Part shown: positions 76-53,362 of the stretch, piece after piece
Layout: the number at the start of each line of letters is the position of its first letter
Position numbering within the stretch: position 1 is the first letter of the stretch
Origin: Duodenibacillus sp.
GTDB taxonomy: Bacteria > Pseudomonadota > Gammaproteobacteria > Burkholderiales > Burkholderiaceae_F
Length of the DNA: 59,944 nt
Assembly: GCA_017628205.1 (NCBI GenBank)
Contig: JAGBZO010000021.1
Location: 1-59,944, forward strand
Direction of reading: 5' to 3'
Program-made: the position numbers and the translations under genes
Notes under the pieces: model-generated
The model's input: only the letters and a program-made list of their open reading frames with translations
Databases searched by the model: none
What the model was told of the DNA's origin: nothing

Positions 76-97
76 GAGATAGGGTAAACCCTATCTC
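76..97. promoter_or_regulatory. Perfect inverted repeat upstream of nosZ (candidate operator)
   Basis: Two exact 10-base arms (GAGATAGGGT and ACCCTATCTC) flank a central AA, 110 bases upstream of the nosZ start. An AT-rich stretch just downstream (around 98-110) could hold the -10 region. The symmetry suggests a dimeric regulator. The response regulator at the end of the operon is the obvious candidate, but this is inference. No FNR-type site was seen here. Confidence 0.55.
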
Positions 98-206
98 GTA
101 TATATCGTATGGTGCAAACGCTATGCTTGGAGTGTAATTCAACTTGGGAGGGCTGTTTTTTCCCAGAACTCGACAAGCTCAACACGTCCTTAGTCAAGGA
201 GGTTAT

Positions 207-2798
207 ATGCATATGAGACAGTTGTTAAAGCTCGTGCCAGTGGGTGCGCTGCTTTCAACCCTGTGCTTCGGCGTTTACGCGTCCAGTGATCTCGAAGCGA
301 TCATGAAGGCACGCAACCTGTCCGAAAAAGACATTTTGGCAGCGGCCAAGACTTACCAGCCGTCCGGTCGACGCGACGACTACATGGTCTTCTCGTCCGG
401 CGGTCAGTCTGGTCAAGTCATCGTTTACGGCGTGCCGTCGATGCGCATTTACAAGTACATCGCCGTCTTTACGCCCGAACCCTGGCAGGGTTACGGGTAT
501 GATGAAGAATCCAAGAAGGTGCTCGACGGCGGCAAGATCAACGGACGTCCCATCACGTGGGGCGATTCTCACCATCCGGCCTTTACCGAAAAGAACGGTG
601 AATACACCGGTGACTACCTCTTTATCAACGACAAGGCCAATCCGCGTATTGCCGTGGTCGATTTGAAGAGTTTTGAAACCGTTCAGATTGTCAGCAACCC
701 CGTCATCAAGAGTGAACACGGCGGGGCGTTCGTCACGCCCAACAGCGAATACGTGATTGAGGCTAGTCAGTACGCCGCCCCGTTGGCAAACGAATACCAT
801 CCGATCGAAGCGTACGAAAGTCAGTACCGCGGAGCCGTGACCATGTGGAAGTTCGACATGGAAAAGGGCCGTATCGATGAAAAGAAATCCTTTACGCTCG
901 AATTGCCGCCTTACATGCAGGACTTGAGCGACGCCGGTAAGTTCGTCTCCGACGGTTGGGCCTTCATTAACTCCTTCAACTCCGAAATGTACACGGGCGG
1001 TATCGAAGCGGGGCTGCCGCCGAACGAAGCCGGTATGAGCCGCAACGACCACGACTACCTGCACGTGTTCAATTGGAAGATCATCGAAAAGCTCGCTCAA
1101 GATGACAAGAACGTTCGCATCGTCAACAACCATCGCGTAGTGCCGATGGACGTGGCCGTCAAGGCCGGTGCTTTGTTCCTAATTCCCGAACCGAAGTCGC
1201 CGCACGGTGTGGACGTCAGTCCCGACGGTCGTTACATCATTGTCGGCGGTAAGCTCGACACGCACGCCTCCGTTTACGACTTTGAAAAGATCAAAAAGCT
1301 GATCGATGCCAAGCAGTTTGCCGGTACCGATCCGTTCGGCATTCCCATCCTCGACATGAAGGAATGTATGCACGGTCAAGTTGAATTGGGGCTTGGTCCG
1401 CTGCACTCGGCCTTTGACTCCAAGGACGGCATTATTTACACGTCGCTGTACGTTGACAGTCAGGTCGTTCGTTGGGACTACAAGAATCTCAAGGTCCTCG
1501 ATCGTGTGAACGTTCACTACAACATCGGACATTTGGATTCGATGGAAGGCAAGTCCGCCAAACCCAAGGGCGATTGGATCTTGGCATTGGATAAGCTCTC
1601 GATCGACCGCTTTAACCCGGTCGGCCCGTTGCATCCGCAAAACCATCAGTTGATCGACATCAACGGTCCGAAGATGGAACTGACCTATGACATGCCGATT
1701 CCGCTCGGTGAACCGCATGACGTCGTGTCCATCGCCGCCGACAAGTTGACGCCCAAGGTCGCATATGACATCGGTACCGACAGCCGTACCGAAAAGCCCA
1801 GTCCTTACGCTACGCTCGCAGGTCAGGAACGTATCGTACGTGACGGCAACAAGGTCACGGTCTACGCCACGATGGTTCGTTCGCACATCAATCCCGAACG
1901 CATCACGGTCAACAAGGGTGACATCGTGACGATCCACCTCTCGAGTTTGGAACGCGCACAGGACGAAACGCATGGCTTTGCCGTTGACAGCCTGAACGTA
2001 CACGCTTCGCTCGAACCGGGTAAGACCGCCACCGTCACGTTCGAAGCCACCGAAGAAGGCGTGTTCCCCTACTACTGCACGGAATTTTGCAGCGCATTGC
2101 ACCTTGAAATGATGGGTTACCTCATGGTCAAGGATCCGAATAAGAAGTACGAAACGACGATCGAAAAGTCCATGTCCACTCTGACCAAGGAGCAGCTCCA
2201 GGCTCAGTACAAGAAGGTCGTGGAAACGAACGAAGCGACCGACGCCGTCATCCAGACGGTCGTGAAGTACCTCAAGGAAAAGGGCTACGAAAAGTATCCG
2301 AGCATCAAGGCGCTTGTCGTTGACGCCCTCGATCAGTACAGCAAGATTCCTGATGTCAAGAAGAAGGCTGACAAGGCCTTGGCCGATGGCAACATCAATC
2401 AGGCCGTCCTGTGGGAAAACCAGATTTGGCAGTACATGGTCAAGACGGCTGACGTCGGGTTGCGCGCCAAGGCTCGCCTTGCTCGCGAATTGGCAACGCC
2501 CATGAGCGCGGCTGCCAGTCGCGGTGAAAAGGCCTACTTGCGCGGCGGCTGTAACGGTTGTCACGTGATCGGTCAGGTTTCGAGCGGTCCGGACTTGACG
2601 GGTGCTCTGGCTCGACGCGGTGAAAAGTGGACGTATGAATTTACGATGGATCCGGAATCTAAGTTCAATGAACCTTACACCAAGGCGATGATCCAGTACT
2701 TCAACTTGCGTATGCCCAACCAGCATATGACGAGTGAAGAAACCAAGGATATTATCGAGTACATGAAGTGGATTGACGCCAACGCCGATCTCTTCTAA
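207..2798 (+). CDS. nosZ: Nitrous-oxide reductase NosZ, clade II with C-terminal cytochrome c domain
   Basis: Periplasmic copper enzyme that reduces N2O to N2. The start at 207 is chosen for the AAGGAGG site at 196-202; it gives 863 residues. The N-terminus is a Sec-type signal (MHMRQLLKLVPVGALL) with no twin-arginine motif, as in clade II enzymes. A seven-bladed propeller region fills the centre. The CuA motif CTEFCSALHLEM is at residues 624-635, and a heme c site CNGCH is at 782-786 in a C-terminal monoheme domain, which clade I enzymes lack. It is the first gene of the nos operon. A strong hairpin after the stop may raise its transcript level over the rest. The family call is secure. Confidence 0.97.
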   Translation: MHMRQLLKLVPVGALLSTLCFGVYASSDLEAIMKARNLSEKDILAAAKTYQPSGRRDDYMVFSSGGQSGQVIVYGVPSMRIYKYIAVFTPEPWQGYGYDEESKKVLDGGKINGRPITWGDSHHPAFTEKNGEYTGDYLFINDKANPRIAVVDLKSFETVQIVSNPVIKSEHGGAFVTPNSEYVIEASQYAAPLANEYHPIEAYESQYRGAVTMWKFDMEKGRIDEKKSFTLELPPYMQDLSDAGKFVSDGWAFINSFNSEMYTGGIEAGLPPNEAGMSRNDHDYLHVFNWKIIEKLAQDDKNVRIVNNHRVVPMDVAVKAGALFLIPEPKSPHGVDVSPDGRYIIVGGKLDTHASVYDFEKIKKLIDAKQFAGTDPFGIPILDMKECMHGQVELGLGPLHSAFDSKDGIIYTSLYVDSQVVRWDYKNLKVLDRVNVHYNIGHLDSMEGKSAKPKGDWILALDKLSIDRFNPVGPLHPQNHQLIDINGPKMELTYDMPIPLGEPHDVVSIAADKLTPKVAYDIGTDSRTEKPSPYATLAGQERIVRDGNKVTVYATMVRSHINPERITVNKGDIVTIHLSSLERAQDETHGFAVDSLNVHASLEPGKTATVTFEATEEGVFPYYCTEFCSALHLEMMGYLMVKDPNKKYETTIEKSMSTLTKEQLQAQYKKVVETNEATDAVIQTVVKYLKEKGYEKYPSIKALVVDALDQYSKIPDVKKKADKALADGNINQAVLWENQIWQYMVKTADVGLRAKARLARELATPMSAAASRGEKAYLRGGCNGCHVIGQVSSGPDLTGALARRGEKWTYEFTMDPESKFNEPYTKAMIQYFNLRMPNQHMTSEETKDIIEYMKWIDANADLF

Positions 2799-2808
2799 TC
2801 GATAGAGT

Positions 2809-2838
2809 TCAGGAAGAGGGCGTTCGTCCTCTTCCTGA
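2809..2838 (+). other. Intercistronic hairpin between nosZ and nosB
   Basis: An 11-base perfect stem (TCAGGAAGAGG / CCTCTTCCTGA) with an 8-base loop follows the nosZ stop. There is no T-run, so it is more likely a 3'-end stabiliser or processing site than a terminator. It would let nosZ be made in excess of the assembly genes; this is inference. Confidence 0.6.
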
Positions 2839-2879
2839 CGTGATCCGCACGAATTCACGAGAACTCAATGGAGGTAAAA

Positions 2880-3662
2880 GTGAAGAAGCTGCACAAATCT
2901 ACCATTTACGCGATTTTGGCTTTATTTTTGATCGTGGTGGGTTTTACTTTTCCCTCCATTGTGTTTTACAAAGTCCCGCAAAAGATCGCTACAGGGCAAA
3001 CCCAAAGTATTCCCTCGTATGTTTATCCGTTGTGGAATGCCTACCAGACGGGCCGTTACGTCAGCCCCTACACGCCTAAAGGAGCCGAGCGCGACCTGAA
3101 GAAAATGATTGAACGCAAGGGTGAAGTCGGCATGATGTCGTTGCCCATTTGGTACGTTTCGCTCGAAGCGCCCAATTATCCAAAAACCGCGTTCCCCGAA
3201 GGTATTCCCGTGTGGTTTCATGTGGATGGCTTCTCCGGCGATATTCATGAAATGAACACGATCAATCACTATGTCGGGATGCATCCGTTGGAAGCGGGCG
3301 CACGCCTGGAACGAGCCGCCGGTCCCTTCATCATGCTCGGCATATCCTTCCTGATGATCGCCTTCATTGCGATCCGAACACCTTGGTCTGTATGGCTGAT
3401 GTTGCCGAGCGCGCTGTTTCCACCGGGCTTTTTCATCTTTTTCGCCAGTTGGATGTACTGGTTCGGTCATAACATGCAGGAGTGGGGCGCGTTCAAGATC
3501 AAAGCGTTTACGCCGACCGCTCTGGGCGTGGGCCACGTGGCGCACTTCACGACCAAGAGTTTCCCTTCCATCGGTTTTTGGGTGTTGGTCGCGATTGCCG
3601 TTCTGAGCGTGTTGGCCATGTTGGCCAGACGCAAGGAGTTAAGGAGTGAAGCGTTGCGCTGA
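2880..3662 (+). CDS. nosB: NosB-like membrane protein of clade II nos operons
   Basis: Integral membrane protein of about 260 residues. The GTG at 2880 is preferred because GGAGG sits 5 bases before it. An N-terminal anchor (AILALFLIVVGF) is followed by an extracytoplasmic stretch of roughly 110 residues, then further membrane segments around residues 145-190 and at the C-terminus (VLVAIAVLSVLAMLA). Position between nosZ and nosD matches the Wolinella order nosZ-B-D. Its biochemical role is not established in the family. The C-terminus overlaps the start of nosD by 17 bases. The identification rests mainly on gene order and topology. Confidence 0.78.
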   Translation: MKKLHKSTIYAILALFLIVVGFTFPSIVFYKVPQKIATGQTQSIPSYVYPLWNAYQTGRYVSPYTPKGAERDLKKMIERKGEVGMMSLPIWYVSLEAPNYPKTAFPEGIPVWFHVDGFSGDIHEMNTINHYVGMHPLEAGARLERAAGPFIMLGISFLMIAFIAIRTPWSVWLMLPSALFPPGFFIFFASWMYWFGHNMQEWGAFKIKAFTPTALGVGHVAHFTTKSFPSIGFWVLVAIAVLSVLAMLARRKELRSEALR

Positions 3663-4923
3663 CATGATGAGGGCATTTATGGTCGGACGATTTCGGTACG
3701 CATTGATGGGGCTGACGGCTTGGGTTCTTTCGAGCTCGGTTCAGTCCTCCGTGCTTCAAAAAGCGATCGATTCGGCGCCCGAGGGAGCGACCGTTGAATT
3801 GGGGGCGGGGCTCTATGAAGGCAATCTGATCATCAACAAGCCCTTGACATTGAGGGCGTCGGAACCCGGCGCCGTTATCCGTGGCGACGGCAAGGGCAGC
3901 GTCATCACCGTGACATCGCCTTTTGTCACGATCGAAGGTCTGACAATCGAAAGAAGCGGTGGCGAACACCAGACGGTCGATGCTGGAGTGACGGTAAAAC
4001 AGGCGCACGTCGTCAAGATTCGCAACAACCGAATTCGCGATTGCCTCTTTGGCGTGAATTTCGAACAAACGAACCAGTCTTTGATCGAAGGCAACGAGAT
4101 TTCGTCCAAGCCCGTCTCGCTCGGGTTACGGGGGGACGGCATTCGACTCTGGTACAGCCATTCGAACCACATCACGCTCAACACCACGTATGACATTCGA
4201 GACAACGTGTTTTGGTATTCGAGCGCCAACCGGATCACGCAAAACGTCGGTCGAGATTCGCGGTATTCGTTGCACTTCATGTACGCCGATCGCAATGTCG
4301 TCTCGCAAAACCGTTATCAAAACAACTCGGTCGGGATCTTTTTGATGTTCAGTCAGGGTGCGACTGTGCAGCGCAACGTCGTTTCTTATGCCACGGGGCC
4401 TTTCGGGATCGGTTTGGGAATGAAGGAAGCAAGCGATATCAAGGTCGAAAACAACGAGGTGCTTTATAACGCACGCGGGTTCTATCTCGATTCGTCGCCC
4501 TATCAGCCGGGCACGCAAAACGTTTTCCTCAACAACAAGATCAATTTCAATTCGATTGCCTTCTTGTTGCACGGAACGCTCTTGCCCAGTCGATTCGAAG
4601 GGAACGAATTCAAGGGCAATATCGACGACGTGGTCAACGATACGCCAGAAAGCAAGTTGGAGCTCAATGTTTGGTCGGGCAACTATTGGGACAACTATCA
4701 GGGGTTCGATCGTGACGGTGACGGCATCGGCGACATCGCACACGAACAGTGGATGTTCGCCGACAGAGTATGGAATTATCAGCCGGCTACGCGTCTGTTC
4801 TACGCGTCGCCGATTTTGGACATCATGAATTTCTTGTGGCGACTAATGCCGTTTTCCGAGCCCGAATTGTTGGCTCGAGACGAGCGGCCGTTGGTCCGCC
4901 CTAAATCGGGGGACAAGCCATGA
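3646..4923 (+). CDS. nosD: NosD, periplasmic copper-site assembly protein
   Basis: Predicted periplasmic right-handed beta-helix protein needed to build the CuZ centre of NosZ together with the NosFY transporter. An N-terminal signal (RYALMGLTAWVLSSSVQSS) is followed by CASH/NosD repeats, seen as recurrent N-x-I/V-x-x-N turns such as IRNNRIRDC, LIEGNEIS and VENNEVLYN. The C-terminal part has the family-typical NYWDNYQGFDRDGDGIGD calcium-like loop. GTG at 3646 has AAGGAG seven bases upstream; an ATG at 3664 is the alternative. About 425 residues is the usual length. It overlaps nosB and its stop overlaps nosG. Confidence 0.93.
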   Translation: MKRCADMMRAFMVGRFRYALMGLTAWVLSSSVQSSVLQKAIDSAPEGATVELGAGLYEGNLIINKPLTLRASEPGAVIRGDGKGSVITVTSPFVTIEGLTIERSGGEHQTVDAGVTVKQAHVVKIRNNRIRDCLFGVNFEQTNQSLIEGNEISSKPVSLGLRGDGIRLWYSHSNHITLNTTYDIRDNVFWYSSANRITQNVGRDSRYSLHFMYADRNVVSQNRYQNNSVGIFLMFSQGATVQRNVVSYATGPFGIGLGMKEASDIKVENNEVLYNARGFYLDSSPYQPGTQNVFLNNKINFNSIAFLLHGTLLPSRFEGNEFKGNIDDVVNDTPESKLELNVWSGNYWDNYQGFDRDGDGIGDIAHEQWMFADRVWNYQPATRLFYASPILDIMNFLWRLMPFSEPELLARDERPLVRPKSGDKP

Positions 4924-5624
4924 AAAAATGGGATCGTCGAGATGTCTTGTTGGGTGGCTCCGCCGTGGCCGTGGCGGGGGCTTGCGGTTTTTCAATCTCG
5001 ATGCTCGCGCGCCGGTCGGAAGCCAAAGGGTTGTTGAGGCCGCCCGGCGCCCTGGAAGAAAAAGCGTTTTTGGCCTCTTGCATCAAATGCGGTCAGTGCA
5101 TTCAAGTGTGCCCATATCATGCCCTCAATCTCTTGGATTTGACGTCGGGCATCGACATGGGGACCCCTATGATCGATCCTCGTCGTCGAGGTTGTTATCT
5201 GTGCGATTTGTTCCCTTGCGTGCTCTGTTGTCCTTCGGGAGCATTGGACTCTCGGGTTCAGTCGATCGATCAGGTCCGAATGGGGACGGCATACGTCAAT
5301 AAGCCCGATCGCTGTTGGGCGCGCGACGGGCGAGCGGTGCCCGAGGATTGGATCGAGACTCTGATCGGTCACGGCAACGCTACGGAACTTGAAAAAGGGC
5401 TCAACGTTAGGTTGCGTCGCCAAATGGGGACGAGTTGTCGCTTGTGTGTCGAGGTCTGTCCGGTTCCCGAACGTGACGGTGCCATTCGTTTGGTCGACGG
5501 CAAGCCCGAAATCGGCTCCAAGTGCGTCGGTTGCGGCGCTTGCGTCGAAGTCTGTCCCGACAATTTGATCGAGGTTCGTGTCAGACAATCGTATGAAGAC
5601 GTTTACGCAAAGGACAAATCATGA
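4920..5624 (+). CDS. nosG: NosG, NapG-type 4x[4Fe-4S] ferredoxin
   Basis: Electron-transfer protein thought to work with NosH to pass electrons from menaquinol toward the periplasmic cytochromes and NosZ. An N-terminal signal/anchor region contains WDRRDVLLGGSAVAVAGACG, whose RRDVLLGG resembles a twin-arginine motif, as in NapG. Cysteine clusters CIKCGQCIQVCP, CYLCDLFPCVLCC, CRLCVEVCP and CVGCGACVEVCP supply four [4Fe-4S] sites. The ATG overlaps the nosD stop as ATGA, so translation is coupled. It is named NosG rather than NapG because it lies in a nos operon. Confidence 0.92.
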   Translation: MKKWDRRDVLLGGSAVAVAGACGFSISMLARRSEAKGLLRPPGALEEKAFLASCIKCGQCIQVCPYHALNLLDLTSGIDMGTPMIDPRRRGCYLCDLFPCVLCCPSGALDSRVQSIDQVRMGTAYVNKPDRCWARDGRAVPEDWIETLIGHGNATELEKGLNVRLRRQMGTSCRLCVEVCPVPERDGAIRLVDGKPEIGSKCVGCGACVEVCPDNLIEVRVRQSYEDVYAKDKS

Positions 5625-6223
5625 AAACACGTGTCAGCCTATACGGCGTTTTGATGATGTTCACCGTGGCGATCGCCGGTTGTGACGGGAATGTCGAATC
5701 GGCCCGCCCGAAAGCCGATGTCGCCAAGTCCGTGCAACCCGTGTCCGCTGCACCAGGCTCCATCAAGGTGATTTCCGCACAAGCACCCGTTTCGACAGCC
5801 GGCGGTGATAGGTTCCGTACCTACGACGTTCGAGGTCAGTCCCAGATTCAGTACGCGCCCAAAGGGCAGGAAATTACGGACGCAGTCAAGAACGTTCAAG
5901 TGGTGGTGGCGGCTCGAAACACGCCCTATGCAAGCATTCACGCCAATTTGCTCGCCAAGCGGTTGAGCAAACAATTCATCGTGTTTTGTTCGGCTTGTCA
6001 TGACGACTATGGCAACGGTGTGATCGGCCCGGCGTTGATTGGAAAAAATGCGCAGGAAGTGCGCAAGATGATGGATAAGTACTCGAGAGATCCGAATGCC
6101 AACGTGTTGATGACCGATCTCATGCACAACATGAAGCCCGCGGAAATCGACTTCATCTGCGAAGACATTGCGCGGTTTAATCGTGAAATTCAAGCCGAAA
6201 CCGGATCGGCACAAATGAGGTGA
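5621..6223 (+). CDS. nosC1: NosC1, monoheme cytochrome c lipoprotein
   Basis: About 200 residues. The N-terminus ends in a lipobox (AIAGC), so the protein is probably a lipid-anchored periplasmic cytochrome. One heme c site, CSACH, lies near residue 126, followed by GNGVIGPALIGK, a class I cytochrome fold signature; Met residues further on (DLMHNMKP) could give the distal ligand. Clade II nos operons carry two such small cytochromes, proposed to carry electrons from NosGH to NosZ. The ATG overlaps the nosG stop (ATGA). The C1 name is given by operon position. Confidence 0.88.
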   Translation: MKTRVSLYGVLMMFTVAIAGCDGNVESARPKADVAKSVQPVSAAPGSIKVISAQAPVSTAGGDRFRTYDVRGQSQIQYAPKGQEITDAVKNVQVVVAARNTPYASIHANLLAKRLSKQFIVFCSACHDDYGNGVIGPALIGKNAQEVRKMMDKYSRDPNANVLMTDLMHNMKPAEIDFICEDIARFNREIQAETGSAQMR

Positions 6224-6228
6224 CGGAT

Positions 6229-6696
6229 ATGGCAGTCAATAAAGCGTTATTGGTCGGAGCAATGGTCGGGACCGCCGTTCTGGTCGGATGGATGATGATG
6301 CAATCGTCATCGGTAGTCGAGCCTCCCGCTCCCGTCGCGCGGCATACGCCGCCGGCTCATATGAAAGCGGACAAACCCAAAGCAACCCCCGTACGGAGCG
6401 AGGCGGTTGATGCGACCCAATTGCGCCATGGCGAGCGCAAGGACATTCACTTGGTCGTGCCGCAGGAAAACCTCTCGCTTCTTTACATCGTCAAGTGTTC
6501 GGCCTGTCACGGACGTGACGGCAAGGGCCCCGTCGGTCCATCGATTGCTGGCAAGTCTTACGAAGAAAATCTGAAATTGTTGCGCCGTTACAAAGCCGAC
6601 GAAGTGCCCAACACCATGATGCTCGATCTGTTGACGCGCACGAGTGAAGACGAGCTTAAGATGCTCAGCCGCGAAATTTCGGCGTTCAAGGAGTAA
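6229..6696 (+). CDS. nosC2: NosC2, membrane-anchored monoheme cytochrome c
   Basis: About 155 residues with an uncleaved-looking N-terminal anchor (ALLVGAMVGTAVLVGWMMM), a proline- and lysine-rich linker, and one heme site CSACHGRDGKGPVGPS. The start at ATG 6229 is preferred since GAGG lies 8 bases upstream; the upstream GTG at 6220 would overlap the nosC1 stop. Its sequence around the heme resembles NosC1, so the two are likely paralogues. Predicted role is electron relay between the quinol side and NosZ. Confidence 0.88.
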   Translation: MAVNKALLVGAMVGTAVLVGWMMMQSSSVVEPPAPVARHTPPAHMKADKPKATPVRSEAVDATQLRHGERKDIHLVVPQENLSLLYIVKCSACHGRDGKGPVGPSIAGKSYEENLKLLRRYKADEVPNTMMLDLLTRTSEDELKMLSREISAFKE

Positions 6697-6708
6697 AGGA
6701 GGCGCTTT

Positions 6709-7575
6709 ATGTCCAAACAGCTACCGTCCGGTCAGTCTTTTTGGATACGCAAGGACATTGACGGCAGCACGCACGTCAAAGTTCGTCCGATCCGCTGGTG
6801 CGTGGCCTTCATTTTGGCGGCCGCTTTCGTGTTGTCCTACGGTTTGGACGTTCAGGTGCTCGAAGGTTCCATGGTTGCAAGCCGTCTGATGGGCTTTCAC
6901 CTGGTGGATTTGTACGGCGGGCTTGAAGTGATTGCCGCGCACGGCGCCATCGCCACGAATCTCGGTTTAGGGATGATTTTCGTTGCCGTCGTGTACTGGA
7001 TGGCGGGCGGACGCAGTTTTTGCGCCTGGGCCTGCCCGTTCGGGTTGCTGTCCGAGTGGGGTGAATGCCTTCACCGACACCTGCTCAAACGCGGTCTCAT
7101 TGCCAAGCGCAAAAAGATCACCACGCGTGTGAAGTACGTGTTTGCCGTGTCGTTTTTGGCGGCCAGTTTCGCCACGGGCTACCTTGTTTTCGGCCAGATC
7201 AATGTTGTCGGAATGCTTTCGCGCCTGTTGATTTACGGCTTGCTCGAGTCCGCTCTGGTCATCGCGTTCGTTTTAATCGTTGAGGTGTTCTTTTGGCGAC
7301 GCCTGTGGTGTCGCGCCGTGTGCCCTTCGGGGGCCGTTTACGGCCTCATGAATCCGGTGGCCGTCATTCGTATCGAAGCGGACCGCTCGCGTTGCGATAA
7401 GTGTGGGGTGTGCGTTCCCGAATGCCACGTGCCGGAAGCCTTGAGCGCCGTTTTTGCGCAGAAAAACGGCTCAGTTTTCTTGAATTCCACGGATTGCACG
7501 ATGTGCGGCAAATGCATGGATGCGTGTACGCGCGGGGTGTTTAGTTTCAGTCATCGACTCAAAAAGATGGTGTGA
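6709..7575 (+). CDS. nosH: NosH, NapH-type membrane ferredoxin/quinol dehydrogenase subunit
   Basis: Polytopic membrane protein of 288 residues with about four transmembrane segments and two CX3CP motifs (CAWACP near residue 105 and CRAVCP near 203), the hallmark of NapH/NosR-type proteins. Two C-terminal [4Fe-4S] motifs (CDKCGVCVPEC and CTMCGKCMDAC) face the cytoplasm. With NosG it likely oxidises menaquinol. It takes the place of the flavin-bearing NosR of clade I operons, which is absent here. A strong AAAGGAGG precedes the start. Confidence 0.93.
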   Translation: MSKQLPSGQSFWIRKDIDGSTHVKVRPIRWCVAFILAAAFVLSYGLDVQVLEGSMVASRLMGFHLVDLYGGLEVIAAHGAIATNLGLGMIFVAVVYWMAGGRSFCAWACPFGLLSEWGECLHRHLLKRGLIAKRKKITTRVKYVFAVSFLAASFATGYLVFGQINVVGMLSRLLIYGLLESALVIAFVLIVEVFFWRRLWCRAVCPSGAVYGLMNPVAVIRIEADRSRCDKCGVCVPECHVPEALSAVFAQKNGSVFLNSTDCTMCGKCMDACTRGVFSFSHRLKKMV

Positions 7576-7577
7576 AT

Positions 7578-8222
7578 ATGCAAATACAGTTGCGTCAAGT
7601 CGTCAAGCGTTTCGGAGCGCAAACAGTGCTCGACGGCGTCACCTTCGACGTTGACACGGCCGAACGCGTCATTATTCTCGGCCAAAACGGCGCCGGGAAA
7701 ACGACGTTGTTGCGTTGTCTCTTGGGGCATTACCGATTGGACGAGGGCGAAGTGCGTTTGGCTGGCTTTGATCCCGTGCGAAAGCGCCGTCAGGCGCTCT
7801 CGGAGGTTGCCTTCATTCCGCAATTGCCACCGCCTTTGCCCGTGAGCATTGAAGCGTTGATCCGTTACGCACACGAAACCACGGGGACGAATCCCCGATT
7901 GGTCAAGGACTACGCCGCGCGCTTCGGATTGGATGTGGAGCGACATCTGGCCAAGCCCTTCAATCAGCTGTCGGGCGGGATGAAGCAAAAATTTCTCGCT
8001 AGTCTTGCGTTTGCCCGAGGTGCACGCATTATGTTGTTCGACGAACCCACGGCCAATCTGGATCCCGAAGGGCGAGAGGCGTTTCGAACGATTCTGCAGG
8101 AAGATCCGTTCCGCGAAACGACGATGATTTTTATCAGTCACCGTATTGAGGAGCTCAATACAATTTTGAACCGAGCCGTATGGCTTGATTTAGGAAAGGT
8201 GGTTAACGATGAGCGTTTGTAA
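7578..8222 (+). CDS. nosF: NosF, ABC transporter ATPase for NosZ maturation
   Basis: Cytoplasmic ATPase of about 214 residues that pairs with NosY to energise export of a sulfur or other factor needed by NosD for CuZ assembly. Walker A is GQNGAGKTT (near residue 38), the signature is LSGGMKQK, Walker B is IMLFDEP, and a switch histidine follows in ISHR. ATG 7578 is used; a GTG at 7572 overlaps the nosH stop and cannot be excluded. The last codons overlap nosL. Confidence 0.95.
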   Translation: MQIQLRQVVKRFGAQTVLDGVTFDVDTAERVIILGQNGAGKTTLLRCLLGHYRLDEGEVRLAGFDPVRKRRQALSEVAFIPQLPPPLPVSIEALIRYAHETTGTNPRLVKDYAARFGLDVERHLAKPFNQLSGGMKQKFLASLAFARGARIMLFDEPTANLDPEGREAFRTILQEDPFRETTMIFISHRIEELNTILNRAVWLDLGKVVNDERL

Positions 8223-8691
8223 CTGGAAATCCTTTGCACTGTTGTTGTCGACCGTCACTTTGTTCGGTTGCGGTCCAAAAATCAATCTCGAACCGGAAAA
8301 TCCGACTTGGGATCGCACCGTCTGCGAACGTTGTCGGATGATGGTGACCGACCGCCAATACTCCGCTCAAGTCGTCAACCCGAAAAACGGCAAACATTTT
8401 TACTTCGACGATTTTGGTTGTGCCGTCAATTGGCTTGAAGAAGCCAAACCGGAATGGGCGGGAGAGGCGATCATCTACGTGACCTCGGCCAAGGACGGCA
8501 CCTGGCTCGACGTCAAAAAGGCGGTGATCGCCAAACCCTTTATCACGCCGATGTCCTACGGTTACGGGGTTGTCGCCAAGGCCGATCAAGTGCCCGAGGG
8601 TAAGACGGTCGTGACGTGGGAGGCGGCACGAGAGGATTTGATGCGGCTCAAGCTCGAGAAAATGAAGAATCGCGCACACGTGCATCACTAA
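8209..8691 (+). CDS. nosL: NosL, copper-binding lipoprotein
   Basis: Outer- or inner-membrane lipoprotein that delivers Cu(I) to NosZ. The signal ends in the lipobox LFGC. The family motif CERCRMMVTDRQYSAQ, with the Cu-binding Cys and Met residues, follows near residue 40, and GKHFYFDDFGCAVNW is also typical. Length (160 residues) is normal. It starts 14 bases inside nosF, implying coupling. In the Wolinella operon the usual order is F-Y-L; here nosL precedes nosY. Confidence 0.93.
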   Translation: MSVCNWKSFALLLSTVTLFGCGPKINLEPENPTWDRTVCERCRMMVTDRQYSAQVVNPKNGKHFYFDDFGCAVNWLEEAKPEWAGEAIIYVTSAKDGTWLDVKKAVIAKPFITPMSYGYGVVAKADQVPEGKTVVTWEAAREDLMRLKLEKMKNRAHVHH

Positions 8692-8701
8692 GGAATCGAC
8701 T

Positions 8702-9529
8702 ATGTCCAATTTGGCCTTGATTTTCCGAATGGACGTCGAGAGCGCCGTCCGTTCGAAATGGTATTGGGCCTATGTTCTCATCGTACTGACGTCGATCGGA
8801 AGCATTTTTGCGGCCGGCGTTGCCGACAGTCGTGTCATGGGATTTACGGGGCTCACGCGCACGCTCCTGATCTTCATTCAGGCTTGCAATCTCATTTTGC
8901 CGATTGTGATTTTGGTCAGCACCGTGAGAACGCTCGTCAAAGAAAAAGAAACGAACGTGTTCGAGTATTTGCTCTCGTACCCGATCAGTTTGGGAGAGTA
9001 CTACTGGGGCAAGGCGTTGTCGCGTCTTGTCATCGTGGCGATGCCTCTGATTTTCGGCATGGCGTTTGCCGTGGCGTTTTCCCTCATCAAAACAAAAGCT
9101 GTGCCCTGGGAGTTGATCGGACTGTATACGGCGTTGCTTGTGGCCAACACCGTTTATTTCGTCGGCTTGAGCTTCTTGCTTAGTTCCGTCGTGAAAACTC
9201 AGGAAATGGGATTGGGGCTGGCCTTGGCGATTTGGCTTGTCGTGATAGCGCTCATTGACGTCGTGCTGCTTGGGATGATGATCAAGGCGCTCGTTCCAGA
9301 AGAGGTCATTTATGCGATCGCGTTGGTCAATCCCATTCAAGTGTTCAAGATGGCGGCCGTGTCGCTGTTTGACCCCGTGTTGTCGGTGATCGGTCCGGCC
9401 GCGTACTTCATTCTGGATCTGTTTGGCAACCGTGCTTTCATTGTCTATTCTTTGTGTTATCTGATCGCTTCGGGGCTCGGCTTCTTCGCGGTCGGGTTCT
9501 GGCGTTTTTGTCGCAAAGATTTGCTTTGA
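8702..9529 (+). CDS. nosY: NosY, ABC transporter permease
   Basis: Integral membrane protein of 275 residues with six predicted transmembrane segments, partner of NosF. The pattern of an N-terminal cytoplasmic region (FRMDVESAVRSKWYWAY), a conserved VRTLVKEKETNVFEYLLSYP loop and a C-terminal hydrophobic pair matches the NosY branch of ABC-2 permeases. AAGGAATC precedes the start. It ends the structural nos operon, and the sensor kinase gene starts 6 bases later, so both may be on one transcript. Confidence 0.93.
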   Translation: MSNLALIFRMDVESAVRSKWYWAYVLIVLTSIGSIFAAGVADSRVMGFTGLTRTLLIFIQACNLILPIVILVSTVRTLVKEKETNVFEYLLSYPISLGEYYWGKALSRLVIVAMPLIFGMAFAVAFSLIKTKAVPWELIGLYTALLVANTVYFVGLSFLLSSVVKTQEMGLGLALAIWLVVIALIDVVLLGMMIKALVPEEVIYAIALVNPIQVFKMAAVSLFDPVLSVIGPAAYFILDLFGNRAFIVYSLCYLIASGLGFFAVGFWRFCRKDLL

Positions 9530-9534
9530 TCGCG

Positions 9535-11322
9535 ATGTTTTTTTTGAAGTGGTGCATTTGTCTGGTGTTGGCGTTTGTCGGGACAATCCGAGAAGTGCCG
9601 GCAACCGTTTGGGGAAAAACGAGCGAACCGGCGGTTCGAATCGCCGCGCTCGACGTCCCGGATTTGGAGGAAATTTCTTCTCAACAAGCCATTTTGCTCG
9701 ACCGTTTGCGTCGTGATTTGCACCCGCGACAGATCGTTTTGAAGTATTACTCGGCCGACGATCTGATTCGCGTCGTTCGACAAGGCGGGGTCGAGTTCGT
9801 GATTGCCGACGCGCTCTTTTTTGCCAGCATCGAACATGAACTAAGTTTTCGCTATTTGGCCGGACTGGTCTATCCCGAAGCAGTGGACGCCGATCACATG
9901 ACGGCCTCGACCGTCTTTGTCAAACGCTCCGCCAAGCGTCTTTCCTGGGACGACATCAAAGGAAAAAAAGCCTGGCTCTTGGATGCCAATTCGTTCGGCG
10001 GTTGGGTGGCGTTGCGGGCGTATTTGGGTCGCCGAGGCCTGCCACAAGGAGTGTTTGACGCACAACCGGTTGAAGGTAGAGATGCATGGAGCCTCATTAA
10101 AGAAGTCCAGCGAAGCGACGACGTCGTCGGTATTTTGCCCGCCTGTTCGTTGGAGCGTTTGGGAGAACAGGGACTTGTCGACTTGCAGGCTTTGACCGTC
10201 ATCGACGAGAAAAAGGGGGCGGGGCTTGATTGTCGACGCACGACCGACATGTACCCCGGGTGGATTTTGGCCTCGATGCCCGCAACCGACATTCAGCTCG
10301 TGAGGCGTATCACGTCGACCGCCCTGATAAGCAATTCGACCGGCGAGTTGCAATGGAGTTTTCCTCCGAGCGATTTGAGGAAAGTCCATGACGTCCTGCT
10401 CGATCTCAATCTGGAGCCCTATGCCAAAAATCAGGAGCGTTTTTGGCAGCAGTTTTTCGATCGCTTCAAATGGTGGATTTTGTTGGGTGTGTTGATCGTG
10501 ATCGCATTGGTGTTTCACAGCTTTATCGTGGCCTGTCTGGTTCGGTCGCGCACGCGCGATTTGCACAACGCCATGATCGAGCGCCAACGCATGACCGAAG
10601 AGATGATTCAAGCACGAGCACGTTTGCAGCGAATGGAAAAGATTCAGGCCGTCAGCTTGCTTTCGACCATCATTGCGCACGAGCTTAAGCAACCCTTGGG
10701 GGCAATTCGCAATTTTTCGCTTGGTCTGATGCGTCGCTCCGAGCAAAACGAGCTCGACCCCCGCACGTTGCAACTCGTGACGAACAAGATCATAGATTTG
10801 ACGGACAACGCGTCCAAAATCGTGACGATGGTGCGCAGTTATGCCAAGAGCGGACAGATCGAGCGTACGGTGGAAAATTTGGGTGACGTGGTGCGAACCG
10901 CGTTGCAAACGCATGCGACGACCCAGGAAAAAGGACCGGCCATTTCACTTGTGATGCCGGACGAGCTCATTCGCATCGAAATTTGCGTTCGCGAAATCGA
11001 ATTGTCGTTGTTGAATTTGCTCAAAAACGCCGTGGAAGCCACACGAGAAGAACCCAAGCCAAAGATAGTCGTGACCGTGCGCCGGGTCGAGCATCACGCG
11101 ATCATCAGTGTGACCGATAACGGCAAGGGGATTCGAGCGGAATCCCTCGAGGCCGTCTTCAAGCCATTGCACTCGTCCAATCCCGCACGATTGGGTTTGG
11201 GGCTGGCGATCGTACAAAGCGTCGCCGAAAGCCACGGCGGTCGCATCAACGCCGTTCCCAACGCCGACAAGGGCGTGACGATGGAGATGGTGTTGCCTTT
11301 ACTCAAGGACAAAAAGGAATGA
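9535..11322 (+). CDS. TtrS-like sensor histidine kinase with PhnD-type periplasmic domain
   Basis: A 595-residue two-component sensor. A signal/anchor (LKWCICLVLAFVGTI) is followed by a periplasmic solute-binding domain of the phosphonate-binding (PhnD-like) type over about residues 35-270, a membrane span (WWILLGVLIVIALVFHSFI), then a coiled linker. The H-box is AHELKQPLGAIRNF, with the N-box LLNLLKNAVEAT and G-boxes DNGKGI and GLGLAIV. This is the architecture of TtrS, the tetrathionate sensor. The ligand here is unknown. Its place at the end of the nos operon suggests control of N2O respiration or a linked electron acceptor. ATG 9535 is chosen because it follows the nosY stop. Confidence 0.85.
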   Translation: MFFLKWCICLVLAFVGTIREVPATVWGKTSEPAVRIAALDVPDLEEISSQQAILLDRLRRDLHPRQIVLKYYSADDLIRVVRQGGVEFVIADALFFASIEHELSFRYLAGLVYPEAVDADHMTASTVFVKRSAKRLSWDDIKGKKAWLLDANSFGGWVALRAYLGRRGLPQGVFDAQPVEGRDAWSLIKEVQRSDDVVGILPACSLERLGEQGLVDLQALTVIDEKKGAGLDCRRTTDMYPGWILASMPATDIQLVRRITSTALISNSTGELQWSFPPSDLRKVHDVLLDLNLEPYAKNQERFWQQFFDRFKWWILLGVLIVIALVFHSFIVACLVRSRTRDLHNAMIERQRMTEEMIQARARLQRMEKIQAVSLLSTIIAHELKQPLGAIRNFSLGLMRRSEQNELDPRTLQLVTNKIIDLTDNASKIVTMVRSYAKSGQIERTVENLGDVVRTALQTHATTQEKGPAISLVMPDELIRIEICVREIELSLLNLLKNAVEATREEPKPKIVVTVRRVEHHAIISVTDNGKGIRAESLEAVFKPLHSSNPARLGLGLAIVQSVAESHGGRINAVPNADKGVTMEMVLPLLKDKKE

Positions 11323-11936
11323 CAGAGAAACAGGAACCCGTAATTCGCATCGTGGATGACGACGAGATGATGTGTAGCTCGTGGGTGTTTTTGCTCGAGG
11401 GCGAACATTGGAAAGTCCGAGCCTATCGGGATGCCGTCGAGTTTTTGGAAAATGACGATTTTGCTGATCCTGGATGCTTGCTGCTCGACGTGCGCATGCC
11501 GAAGATGTCCGGACTCGAATTGCAGGAGCTCATGAGCATTCGCGAGATTGAGTTGCCGATTGTGTTTGTTTCCGGACACGGTAAGATTGATATGGTCGTG
11601 CACGCCTTGAAGCATGGCGCGTGCGATTTTCTGGAAAAGCCGGTTGACGAGGTCAAACTCTTGGTGGCGTTGAATTCGGCCGTTGAAAAGGATCAGGAAA
11701 ACCGTCACAAGGCTCTACAGATCAAAACCAATGCCGACAAGTACGCGTTGTTGACAGTGCGCGAAAAAGAAGTGGTGCAGCTCGTTGCGATCGGGTTGAT
11801 GAACAAGGTCATTGCGGATCGGTTGGGAATCAGTGAACGAACCGTGCAGATTCATCGAGGTGTTGCATGTAGAAAACTAGGGGTGCGATCGAGTGTTGAC
11901 TTAGTCAAATTTTTACAAACACTAGAGATAGTTTGA
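11319..11936 (+). CDS. TtrR/FixJ-family response regulator
   Basis: A 205-residue regulator with an N-terminal receiver (acidic pair DDDE near residue 13, phospho-acceptor Asp in LLLDVRMPKMSG, conserved Lys in FLEKPVDE) and a C-terminal LuxR-type helix-turn-helix (LTVREKEVVQLVAIGLMNKVIADRLGIS begins near residue 140). It overlaps the kinase stop by 4 bases (ATGA), the usual mark of a cognate pair. FixJ-family members bind inverted repeats, so the palindrome at 76-97 is a plausible target. Confidence 0.92.
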   Translation: MTEKQEPVIRIVDDDEMMCSSWVFLLEGEHWKVRAYRDAVEFLENDDFADPGCLLLDVRMPKMSGLELQELMSIREIELPIVFVSGHGKIDMVVHALKHGACDFLEKPVDEVKLLVALNSAVEKDQENRHKALQIKTNADKYALLTVREKEVVQLVAIGLMNKVIADRLGISERTVQIHRGVACRKLGVRSSVDLVKFLQTLEIV

Positions 11937-12382: not shown

Positions 12383-13609
12383 TTAATTTTTACTGGCAGA
12401 GCGAGCCGCAATGCGACCGAATGCCATGGCCTTACCCCAAGCGGTACCGGTCATGTAGGCGGCACCGTGTACGCCGCCGGTGATTTCGCCGGCTGCATAC
12501 AACTGCTTGATCGGTTCGCCGAACACGTCGATGACCTGCGCCTGATCGTTGATCTTGACACCGCAATAGGTGGCGATCAAGACGGCGGTCGCCGGCATGA
12601 TGTAGAACGGCCCCTTTTCAATCTTGATCAGGGCCTTTTCGGCAAGTGCATGGTCAATACCATTAATGGCACACCAGTCACGGAAGGTGGAGCGGCATCC
12701 GTGCATCGTGACCTTGCGACCCAAGATAGCAATCAACTTCAGACGCGGAGAATCGGATGCAATGATGCGACCGTTGGCCACGAAGAGCGGGCCTTCGGCA
12801 GCAGCCATTTCCAGGGCTTTTTTGGCTAAGGATGAAAGCGGGACACGGTGGAGGAGCGGGTGACCATCCTTGCGTCGTTCCGGCGGCACCAACCACACGT
12901 CTCCATCGATTTCCTCACGAGTCGCCAATCGGAACTCATTGACACGACTGGCAGTGGCGATTCCAAAGAGAATGGCTGCGCTGACGGGAGACGGATGCGA
13001 CAAGCAGTAGGAAACCACTTTGCGCGCTTCATCGAGCGTCAGGGCTTCGTGATGCTCAACGGTTTGTACTTTCCCCTTGCTCGGAAGATCGAATTCCAAA
13101 TTAGCCTTCCAGACGGCCGGATTGGCGTCCGTACGGTAGCCATGATGGATGGCCCAGGAGAGGATGGCCCCGAGACGCATACGCAAGCGAGAAGCCGTCT
13201 CGTTCTTCGTAAACCAGATAGGCTTGATGACGGCCGGGATGTCGGCTCGAGTGATGTCAGAGAGCGCCAAAGGGCCCAAGAGAGGCAAAGCGTAGTCTCT
13301 GAGGGTTTGCTCCCACTGAAGGTGAGATTTCTCGTTACGCCACTGTTTGATCTCGGCGATGTCGTTTAGCGCCATGGGAAGAGCATCGGCAAAACACAGG
13401 CTCTCGGTTCCCGGGCGTTTCTCCGTTTCATCGAAACCGACCATGACACGCGCCGGACTGCGTTTGGCTTCACGTAAAGAAATCGTGTCGGCATTGTCCC
13501 GGCTGTGTTCAATTTGTTTGCCGTTACTCTTAAAGCGAGCAATGGAATAACGGGAGCCGTTGGCTTTCGTCAGCAGATAGAGATTGGGGGTGATGCATTC
13601 CTTTGCCAT
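12383..13609 (-). pseudogene. Chimeric integrase fused to flavocytochrome c/fumarate reductase tail
   Basis: The frame can be read from 13633, but ATG 13609 (MAKECITP) looks like the natural start. Counting from 13633, residues up to about 335 are a tyrosine integrase with catalytic Arg in TASRVNEF (R230) and the HGCR box (H311, R314). After AEKAL (335, near base 12629) the sequence changes to KIEKGPFY and GVKIND, then LYAAGEITGGVHGA and GRIAA, the C-terminal FAD-binding end of fumarate reductase-type flavocytochromes. The catalytic Tyr is missing, so recombinase activity is unlikely. Its position beside tRNA-Ser marks an old island that suffered a deletion. Confidence 0.88.
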
Positions 13610-13785
13610 ACGTTCCACACCCCAAACGTTCATCTAGATTGAGGGGGTGGAACATTTCACACATGTTCCCCGACAAAAATCGATTTGAAAAAGGCTGTCG
13701 TGGCAAAAAACCGACTCATATCGGTCGGTGATGAAGCGGGTGGAAAAAACTTGAAATTCAAGGAATTGAGGCGAAAGACCAATGC

Positions 13786-13834: not shown

Positions 13835-13924
13835 TGGCGGAAGGGGAGGGATTCGAACCCTCGGTGCCCTGATGGACACGCCGCCTTTCCAGGGCGGTAC
13901 ATTCAACCACTCTGCCACCCTTCC
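13835..13924 (-). tRNA. tRNA-Ser, anticodon GGA
   Basis: A 90-base class II tRNA on the minus strand. The acceptor arms GGAAGGG and CCCTTCC pair, the anticodon stem CCGCC/GGCGG holds the loop CTGGAAA (anticodon GGA, reading UCC and UCU), a long variable arm follows, and the T-loop is GTTCGAATC. The CCA end is encoded. The integrase pseudogene begins about 225 bases downstream, the usual arrangement for an island inserted at a tRNA 3' end. No second copy of the tRNA 3' end was seen in the window. Confidence 0.97.
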
Positions 13925-14009: not shown

Positions 14010-14711
14010 TCACAACTTGCGAAGAGCGTCAACGAGAGCCGTCTTGGCTTCGGTCTTTGCGTCCTTCATCTTGATGACACGGGCGGGATTGCCGACAACG
14101 ACGGCGTTGGGCGGCACATCTTCGATAACGATGGAGCCGGCGCCGACGACGGCGTTGGCACCGATGCGAACGCCTTCGATCACGACGGCGTTGGCGCCGA
14201 TCATGACGTTGTCTTCAACGATGACGGGGGTGGCAGAAGCGGGTTCAACCACGCCGGCCAACACGGTCCCGGCACCGATGTGGCAGTTGTTGCCGACCAT
14301 GGCGCGGCCGCCGAGTACGGCACCCATGTCGATCATGGTGCCCTTGCCGATCACGGCGCCGATGTTGATGACGGCTCCCATCATGATGACGGCGCCTTCG
14401 CCGATTTCAACCTTTTCTCGGATGACGGCGCCCGGTTCGATACGGGCCTTGATGTTCTTGAGGTCGAGCATCGGCACGCCCGAGTTGCGACGATCGTTTT
14501 CCACGACCATGTCAGCGATACGATCGGCATTGGCGGCCAAGACGGGCTCGACTTCGGCCCAGTCGCCAAAAACGACGACGCTCATGCCCTCGCCGAAGAC
14601 CTTGGCGGAGGTGGAGGAAAAGTCGATGCGATCCCTCAAATTCAGATAGACCTTGACGGGAGTCTTCTTGACGGAGTTGCTGATGTAATCGATGATTTCT
14701 TGTGCGTTCAT
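14010..14711 (-). CDS. dapH: Tetrahydrodipicolinate N-acetyltransferase DapH
   Basis: Acetylates tetrahydrodipicolinate in the acetylase branch of diaminopimelate/lysine synthesis. The 233 residues have an N-terminal domain ([13 protein letters not shown], then a [14 protein letters not shown] segment) and a left-handed beta-helix of hexapeptide repeats from about residue 90 ([41 protein letters not shown]), ending in [10 protein letters not shown]. Length and the N-terminal domain fit DapH, not the longer succinyl-transferring DapD usual in Betaproteobacteria. It is last in the dapA-dapB-dapH operon. Confidence 0.93.
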
Positions 14712-45742: not shown

Positions 45743-45744
45743 TC

Positions 45745-53233: not shown

Positions 53234-53362
53234 GAGTAAGAAGCTTTCTCGAAAGCGGGTATCCGGCTCGTTCACGACTCGAGATTGCTTTACACTTGAC
53301 GATCGACAAAGCGTGGCGATGCGGTGTCGCCGCCCAACGGTACGACGGAGCGCAAGACGTCG

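What the first reader, a model, noticed from the sequence alone, without database searches (positions are those of the whole stretch)
207..11936. Clade II nos operon joined to a TtrS/TtrR-like two-component system
The operon has the Wolinella gene set (nosZ, B, D, G, C1, C2, H, F, Y, L) with a Sec-exported NosZ bearing a C-terminal heme, and no nosR or nosX. This type is best known from Epsilonproteobacteria and Bacteroidetes, yet the surroundings look betaproteobacterial. Only 6 bases after nosY comes a sensor kinase with a PhnD-like periplasmic domain, the architecture of the tetrathionate sensor TtrS, and no ttrABC is present. The sensor could read N2O, nitrite, a sulfur oxide or a metabolite.
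Basis: partly seen in the sequence, partly recalled or inferred. Interest (0 to 1): 0.72.

Follow-up and report, generated by a model that had tools for sequence, protein, structure and literature searches.

The report
N2O-reductase operon carrying a borrowed sensor
A bacterium of a gut-associated family carries the genes for destroying the greenhouse gas nitrous oxide together with a two-part sensor switch of a kind best known from sulfur respiration, and a short DNA element in front of the genes, identical in a distant relative, suggests that the switch has taken over their control.

Summary
A complete Wolinella-type clade II nos operon (Z-B-D-G-C1-C2-H-F-L-Y, heme-tailed Sec NosZ) ends in a PhnD-domain histidine kinase and a LuxR-type regulator (5-bp gap, then 4-bp overlap). 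The kinase has TtrS architecture but is not TtrS (180 bits, cut-off 750). The operon is of Campylobacterota type; the host is a Sutterellaceae relative. The nos-TCS join recurs in 2 of 2 nos-bearing genomes among 67 of the family (the other is a Turicimonas MAG) and was not found at 129 other nos loci, 73 of which show at least 2 kb beyond nosY. The two nos-linked kinases are sisters (100/100). A 20-bp block is identical upstream of both nosZ genes, occurs once per genome at up to 3 mismatches, and has no match under 3 mismatches in 106 other nos loci. The Crp/Fnr box, exact in 42 of 74 comparator upstreams, is exact in neither. Best reading: after horizontal transfer, nos came under one of the PhnD-type two-component systems that this family sets beside respiratory genes. 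Regulation is inferred; the ligand is unknown (a small anion is likelier than N2O). New variant of a known kind.

The parts
91..110 (+). 20-bp block CTATCTCGTATATATCGTAT (tandem TCTCGTAT/TATCGTAT, period 9), candidate operator of the linked regulator
   Evidence: identical 64 bp upstream of Turicimonas nosZ, 96 bp upstream here; single copy per genome at up to 3 mismatches
76..97 (.). inverted repeat GAGATAGGGTAAACCCTATCTC overlapping the 20-bp block; by eye only partly kept in Turicimonas
122..127 (+). -10-like TATGCT, 11 bases after the block (TAATAA, 10 bases after, in Turicimonas); picked by eye, not reported by the promoter scan
207..2798 (+). nosZ, clade II, Sec signal, C-terminal heme c
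   Evidence: TIGR04246 848 bits, Cytochrom_C 771-855
2868..3662 (+). nosB (membrane protein)
   Evidence: 81% to Turicimonas, 47-60% to other heme-tailed operons
3646..4923 (+). nosD
   Evidence: TIGR04247, PF05048
4920..5624 (+). nosG (NapG-like ferredoxin)
   Evidence: 4Fe-4S families; NapG models below cut-off; synteny
5621..6223 (+). nosC1 (mono-heme c)
   Evidence: CxxCH in sequence; synteny
6220..6696 (+). nosC2 (mono-heme c)
   Evidence: CxxCH in sequence; synteny
6709..7575 (+). nosH (NapH-like)
   Evidence: TIGR02163 213.8 bits, cut-off 213.05
7572..8222 (+). nosF (ABC ATPase)
   Evidence: PF00005
8209..8691 (+). nosL (lipoprotein, Cu chaperone-like by recall)
   Evidence: position; 30-47% tblastn matches at other nos loci
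8702..9529 (+). nosY (ABC permease)
   Evidence: PF12679
9535..11322 (+). sensor histidine kinase with PhnD-like periplasmic domain (open frame from GTG 9454; ATG 9535 precedes the signal peptide)
   Evidence: PF12974 44.3 bits, HATPase_c; NF040750 180 bits of 750
11319..11936 (+). response regulator, receiver + LuxR-type HTH
   Evidence: PF00072, PF00196

Best explanation
A clade II nos operon of Campylobacterota type was acquired by a betaproteobacterial lineage. In Sutterellaceae it came under new control: a PhnD-type two-component system, the sort this family sets beside respiratory reductase genes, became the last two genes of the operon, a new operator arose at the nosZ promoter, and the ancestral Crp/Fnr (Nss-type) control was probably lost. 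The kinase's periplasmic binding domain detects a small periplasmic ligand and phosphorylates the LuxR-type regulator, which binds the tandem CGTAT element near the -35 region and turns on nosZ-nosY together with its own genes (positive autoregulation). Shown here: anatomy, conserved synteny, kinase orthology, the conserved single-copy element, absence of an exact Crp/Fnr box. Inferred: that this regulator binds that element, that it activates, autoregulation, and loss of Crp/Fnr control. Not known: the ligand; I favour a small anion that announces N-oxide respiration (nitrite or nitrate; the genome has NapA and an NrfA-like protein) over N2O itself, which offers a phosphonate-type pocket little to hold.
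For: Gene packing: 5-bp gap nosY-kinase, 4-bp overlap kinase-regulator; 2-bp gap in Turicimonas. Synteny in 2 of 2 nos-bearing genomes of 67 in the family, two genera, although the operons have drifted far (nosZ DNA 71.6% identical, kinase 49.9%; nos G+C 54% against 41%). Kinase pair monophyletic 100/100 among 35 rows; their special likeness lies in the sensor half (33.3%; next best to the window 27.0%) and not in the kinase half (39.4%, orphan kinases up to 41.8%). The 20-bp block is the longest common word of the two upstreams (maximum 12 in 300 Markov pairs); 1 copy in each of the two genomes, 0 in 4 relatives without nos at up to 3 mismatches, reversed control 0. TTGA-N6-TCAA exact in 42 of 74 upstreams (shuffles 0.006 per locus) and in 1 of 2 g136 relatives, in neither Sutterellaceae upstream. 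Family habit: 17 of 26 fetched PhnD kinase-regulator pairs have a flavoprotein-like frame within 5.5 kb (motif count); one closes an Mcc/Sir-like operon with NosL-D-F-Y-type genes, one adjoins a molybdoenzyme.
Against: Only two genomes carry the join, both draft assemblies (one a named MAG). No binding or expression data. The upstream here is cut at 206 bp by the contig end. 32 of 74 comparator upstreams lack an exact Crp/Fnr box too, and at 2 mismatches the box is no commoner than in shuffles by much (2.7 against 2.0 per locus), so its absence here is weak evidence for replacement. A box with one mismatch lies upstream of Turicimonas nosZ (shuffles 0.18). The promoter scan reports no sigma-70 match at the block, and its total (8) is at the shuffled level (6.8). 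The regulator tree does not resolve the nos pair. With a 15-base core at 2 mismatches G064 has 3 hits against 4 in the reversed control. 9 of 26 pairs had no flavoprotein-like frame by the motif.
Confidence: 0.68

Rival explanations
1. The TCS is a hitch-hiking neighbour: it controls something else (for example a flavoprotein reductase, of which a C-terminal fragment lies just downstream) and moved with the nos operon.
For: A FAD_binding_2 C-terminal fragment fused to an integrase fragment begins 447 bp downstream of the regulator; 17 of 26 fetched PhnD-type pairs of this family have a flavoprotein-like frame nearby.
Against: The join is kept in a second genus whose next downstream frame is an IS66-type transposase, not a flavoprotein; 5-bp and 2-bp gaps suggest one transcript; a conserved element private to nosZ.
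Confidence: 0.12
2. The TCS regulates nos but the 20-bp block belongs to another factor (Crp/Fnr family, another regulator or an unusual sigma factor), or is itself a core promoter.
For: The block covers where a -35 would lie; part of it pairs into a hairpin here.
Against: It is unlike TTGA-N6-TCAA; the incomplete G000 shows one HTH_Crp_2 match, G064 five, three of them over the cut-off, so no count of such regulators explains it; single copy per genome.
Confidence: 0.17
3. The 20-bp block is a recombination or transposon boundary that came with the operon.
For: Integrase fragment and tRNA-Ser on the other flank here; a Phage_integrase protein, a type I methylase and an IS66-type transposase around the Turicimonas operon.
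Against: One copy per genome, so no second att site seen (G000 is incomplete); apart from words of 8 bases or fewer the stretches between block and nosZ (96 and 64 bp) share nothing, so it is not the edge of a homologous stretch; no second copy of the tRNA 3' end in the window.
Confidence: 0.06
4. The sensor reads a sulfur oxyanion (sulfite, thiosulfate, tetrathionate), so nos is switched by sulfur chemistry of the gut.
For: Known PhnD-type kinases read tetrathionate and thiosulfate (PMC5408782, passages and section 5); a Turicimonas PhnD pair closes an Mcc/Sir-like operon.
Against: That kinase lies outside the supported 14-row set that holds the nos pair; of 3 PF00384 proteins in the incomplete genome none is a TtrA or PhsA by its best model.
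Confidence: 0.2

Closest known systems
Wolinella succinogenes / Campylobacterota clade II nos operon with Nss (Crp/Fnr) control
   Same: gene set and order, heme-tailed Sec NosZ, NosGC1C2H electron module
   Different: betaproteobacterial host, two-component genes at the end, no exact Crp/Fnr box, private 20-bp element
TtrS/TtrR and ThsS/ThsR (PhnD-type two-component systems)
   Same: PF12974-HisKA-HATPase kinase, LuxR/FixJ-type regulator, beside a respiratory reductase
   Different: beside nosZ, no ttr genes found, 180 bits of the 750 needed for TtrS
Mcc/Sir-like (Tsr of PMC4257093) operon, here G064:C22
   Same: NosL-D-F-Y-type genes followed by a PhnD-type kinase and regulator
   Different: multiheme cytochrome and NrfCD-like module (by inspection) instead of nosZ; its kinase lies elsewhere in the tree
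TCS upstream of nosZ in some Campylobacterota (L018, L021, L032, L033, L078)
   Same: a two-component system beside clade II nosZ
   Different: no PhnD domain (PAS in 3 of 5 kinases scanned, PilJ in 1), different regulator, upstream of nosZ

Membership tests
clade II (Sec-dependent) NosZ | TIGR04246 over cut-off, TIGR04244 below | tested here: met
   848 of 625; 396 of 625
clade II (Sec-dependent) NosZ | groups with heme-tailed Campylobacterota NosZ | tested here: met
   12-row set 100/98 in a 48-row tree; no clade I rows were included
Wolinella-type nos operon | NosG-C1-C2-H module and NosB beside nosZ, no nosR/nosX in the operon | tested here: met
   nosR/nosX not sought genome-wide; gene names of Wolinella recalled
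TtrS (tetrathionate sensor, NF040750) | curated score | tested here: not met
   180 bits, cut-off 750; Turicimonas kinase 175
TtrS (tetrathionate sensor) | adjacent ttrABC | tested here: not met
   none in the operon; no TtrA among 3 PF00384 proteins of the incomplete genome
TtrS (tetrathionate sensor) | binds tetrathionate | not testable with these tools
   needs an assay
PhnD-type sensor kinases (PF12974-HisKA-HATPase_c, as in PMC5408782) | domain order with adjacent response regulator | tested here: met
   PF12974 44.3 (cut-off 27), HATPase_c 67.5 (26.4), HisKA 23.7 (26.9, slightly below), Response_reg-GerE next door
Nss/Crp-Fnr regulated nos promoter | TTGA-N6-TCAA upstream of nosZ | tested here: not met
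   0 at up to 2 mismatches in the 206 bp available; exact in 42 of 74 comparators

The most novel reading that the evidence does not exclude
A dedicated periplasmic binding-protein kinase that reads a signal of N-oxide respiration (N2O or another N-oxide ligand) and switches a clade II nos operon through a private operator, built by swapping out Crp/Fnr control after horizontal transfer.
Probability: 0.25. Interest if true: 0.82.

Novelty: new variant of a known kind. Interest (0 to 1): 0.6.

Why it matters
Clade II N2O reducers are an N2O sink, and what tells them to make the enzyme is known mainly for Nss-type Crp/Fnr regulators (PMC6682613, PMC11539149, passages). Here a candidate sensor, its regulator and a candidate operator sit in one operon of a host-associated lineage: a compact case of regulatory change after horizontal transfer and a ready-made reporter to ask what signal accompanies N2O in the gut.

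Tried and rejected
TtrS membership: rejected on score and absent ttr genes. Clade I NosZ: rejected. TCS descended from the Mcc/Sir-like operon's TCS: not supported by the kinase tree (the regulator tree has the mcc regulator next nearest by path, without support). Genomic island at tRNA-Ser: no second copy of the tRNA end in the window, and DapH gave no match at 1e-60 in 9 genus mates, so that flank could not be compared. Structure of the sensor domain: prediction switched off, so no pocket model and no fold search; the PDB sequence search matched only the kinase half.

Limits of samples and rows dropped. One search found 271 relatives of NosZ and kept the best 80; order, class and phylum scans were samples of 399, 369 and 398 genomes. 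Of the 79, 27 and 23 other nos loci, 35, 24 and 14 show nosY with 2 kb or more beyond it. Two short loci (L255, L256), four weak or partial NosZ hits and second copies in one genome were not fetched or examined. The NosZ tree used L010-L049 of the 80, of which five were dropped because the script did not recover the frame, and 9 of the 27 order loci. The kinase counts per genome stop at the 19 candidates scored, and matches at 1e-20 may include kinases without a PhnD domain. The first kinase batch was taken by best match, so orphans were over-represented; fragments, duplicates and all but 8 orphans were dropped before the 35-row tree. Five of 83 loci were left out of the Crp/Fnr-box count for short upstreams, and nosZ starts were chosen by rule.

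Papers: searches showed no report of a PhnD-type kinase linked to nos, and none with Turicimonas and nosZ; subscription papers are mostly not held, and longer lists were cut. The one paper holding TtrS, nosZ and two-component (PMC6704655) speaks of ttrS beside ttrABC and of nosZ apart from it (passages). Seen: PMC5408782 passages and section 5; PMC6682613, PMC4794192, PMC4257093, PMC11539149, PMC6704655 passages; the others search listings only.

Full report
What is there. The window is the first 59,944 bases of contig C2 of an unnamed 1.83-Mb genome (50 contigs, 85.7% complete). From 207 to 11936 twelve intact genes run on the + strand with no gap over 69 bases: nosZ, B, D, G, C1, C2, H, F, L, Y, then a sensor kinase and a response regulator. 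NosZ is the Sec-dependent clade II type with a C-terminal heme c. The kinase begins 5 bases after nosY, the regulator overlaps it by 4. The kinase carries PF12974 (phosphonate-binding) before the kinase core; the TtrS model gives 180 bits where 750 are needed.

Where the operon comes from. Among the 80 loci kept of 271, the nearest NosZ is in a Turicimonas MAG (86%), then Campylobacter showae and others (65-74%, nearly all titled Campylobacterota). That Turicimonas contig is G064:C4, so L009 and G064 are one genome. Two genomes of another Burkholderiales family, G317 and G426, have NosZ at 78% and the same gene order Z to Y without the TCS. In a 48-row NosZ tree the window and Turicimonas pair (100/100), join G317 and G426 (100/99), and lie with C. 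showae and other Campylobacterota-type rows, apart from the shorter NosZ (764-782 aa) of other Burkholderiales. Of 67 genomes in the family, 2 have TIGR04246. So the operon is of epsilon type, and the TCS was most simply added on the Sutterellaceae side. Each copy has the G+C of its own surroundings (nos 54% here, 41% in Turicimonas) and nosZ DNA is 71.6% identical, so the join is not recent.

The join is conserved. Turicimonas has all ten nos genes in the same order, followed after 2 bases by a kinase (37%) and regulator (58%). With 35 PhnD-type sensor halves as queries, 129 other nos loci gave no match at 1e-3 (79, 27 of the order, 23 of class and phylum), while the window, L009/L119 and the Mcc/Sir-like locus L225 rang as controls; 73 of the 129 extend at least 2 kb beyond nosY, so the absence is tested there and only partly elsewhere.

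The kinase belongs to a family expanded here: 58 of 67 genomes have a match at 1e-20, with up to 19 counted per genome, which is also the number of candidates scored. Three sorts appear among those fetched: kinase-regulator pairs, 17 of 26 with a flavoprotein-like frame nearby by a motif count (FAD_binding_2 met in the four such proteins given to Pfam); one pair closing an Mcc/Sir-like operon with a multiheme cytochrome (7 CxxCH) and NosL, D, F and Y-type genes (the cytochrome matched only Cytochrome_C7, so the name rests on operon content and on the Tsr operon of PMC4257093); and regulator-less orphans beside tig-clpP-clpX-lon-type genes (names by inspection). In the tree the two nos kinases are sisters at 100/100. 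Their likeness is special in the sensor half (33.3%, next best 27.0%), not in the kinase half (39.4%, orphans up to 41.8%), which fits a shared ligand.

The promoter. In the 206 bases before nosZ and 406 before Turicimonas nosZ the longest common word is 20 bases, CTATCTCGTATATATCGTAT; 300 random pairs reach 12 at most. It occurs once in G000 and once in G064, both before nosZ, and not in four relatives without nos, at up to 3 mismatches; the reversed pattern gives 0. A 15-base core at 2 mismatches adds one hit in G000 (control 0), two in G064 (three hits in all, control 4) and one in G426, so the shorter core is no longer specific. In 106 other nos loci the best match has at least 3 mismatches. 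The block holds a tandem repeat (TCTCGTAT, TATCGTAT) and is followed after 11 and 10 bases by -10-like hexamers (by eye). The Crp/Fnr box TTGA-N6-TCAA, sought for Nss-type regulators in PMC11539149 (passages), is exact in 42 of 74 upstreams and in G317, and absent here even at 2 mismatches; Turicimonas has one at 1 mismatch, near chance. Since 32 of 74 comparators also lack an exact box, this absence alone proves little.

How it likely works. The imported operon came under the family's own scheme, a PhnD-type system beside a respiratory operon. The sensor binds a periplasmic ligand, the regulator binds the block and activates nosZ-Y and itself. The genome has NapA, an NrfA-like protein (PF02335 over cut-off; the curated NrfA models not reached), a DmsA-type and an FdnG-type protein, so nitrate reduction to ammonium with N2O respiration is likely, and nitrite or nitrate are reasonable signals; sulfur oxyanions are the known ligands of such domains (PMC5408782). 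N2O itself is an unlikely ligand for a phosphonate-type pocket (inference). The invariant Cys177, Glu180, Cys206 and Trp247 of the 33 aligned sensors (numbering of the aligned piece) are family features and do not tell the ligand.

Limits. Two draft genomes carry the join; no expression, binding or structure data; upstream cut at 206 bp; the ligand is open.

Noticed in passing
L018, L021, L032, L033, L078 (upstream of nosZ): Campylobacterota nosZ genes with a different two-component system just upstream: of five kinases scanned, PAS in L021, L033, L078 and PilJ in L018, regulator of 228-249 aa; a few more loci show kinase or regulator matches there. A NarX-like nitrate sensor is suspected from recall.
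   Followed up: partly
12383-13633: Integrase fragment fused in frame to the C-terminal end of a FAD_binding_2 flavoprotein, next to tRNA-Ser 13835-13924: a recombination scar.
   Followed up: partly
L225/L246 (G064:C22): Mcc/Sir-like operon (7 CxxCH cytochrome, NosL-D-F-Y-like, CcmF) ending in its own PhnD-type kinase and regulator.
   Followed up: partly
L122 5551-7548 and most of L204-L215: Regulator-less PhnD-type kinases in recurring neighbourhoods (tig-clpP-clpX-lon-type genes by inspection in some), function unknown.
   Followed up: no
14010-14711: DapH-type gene with no match at 1e-60 in 9 genus mates.
   Followed up: no
45640-47541 and 53324-55927: [FeFe]-hydrogenase and a metal P-type ATPase with HMA domains in the same window; the latter could bear on copper for NosZ.
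   Followed up: no
L011, L012, L013: MAG records titled H. pylori PMSS1, Desulfosporosinus and H. cetorum carry closely related NosZ; some of these titles may be wrong.
   Followed up: no
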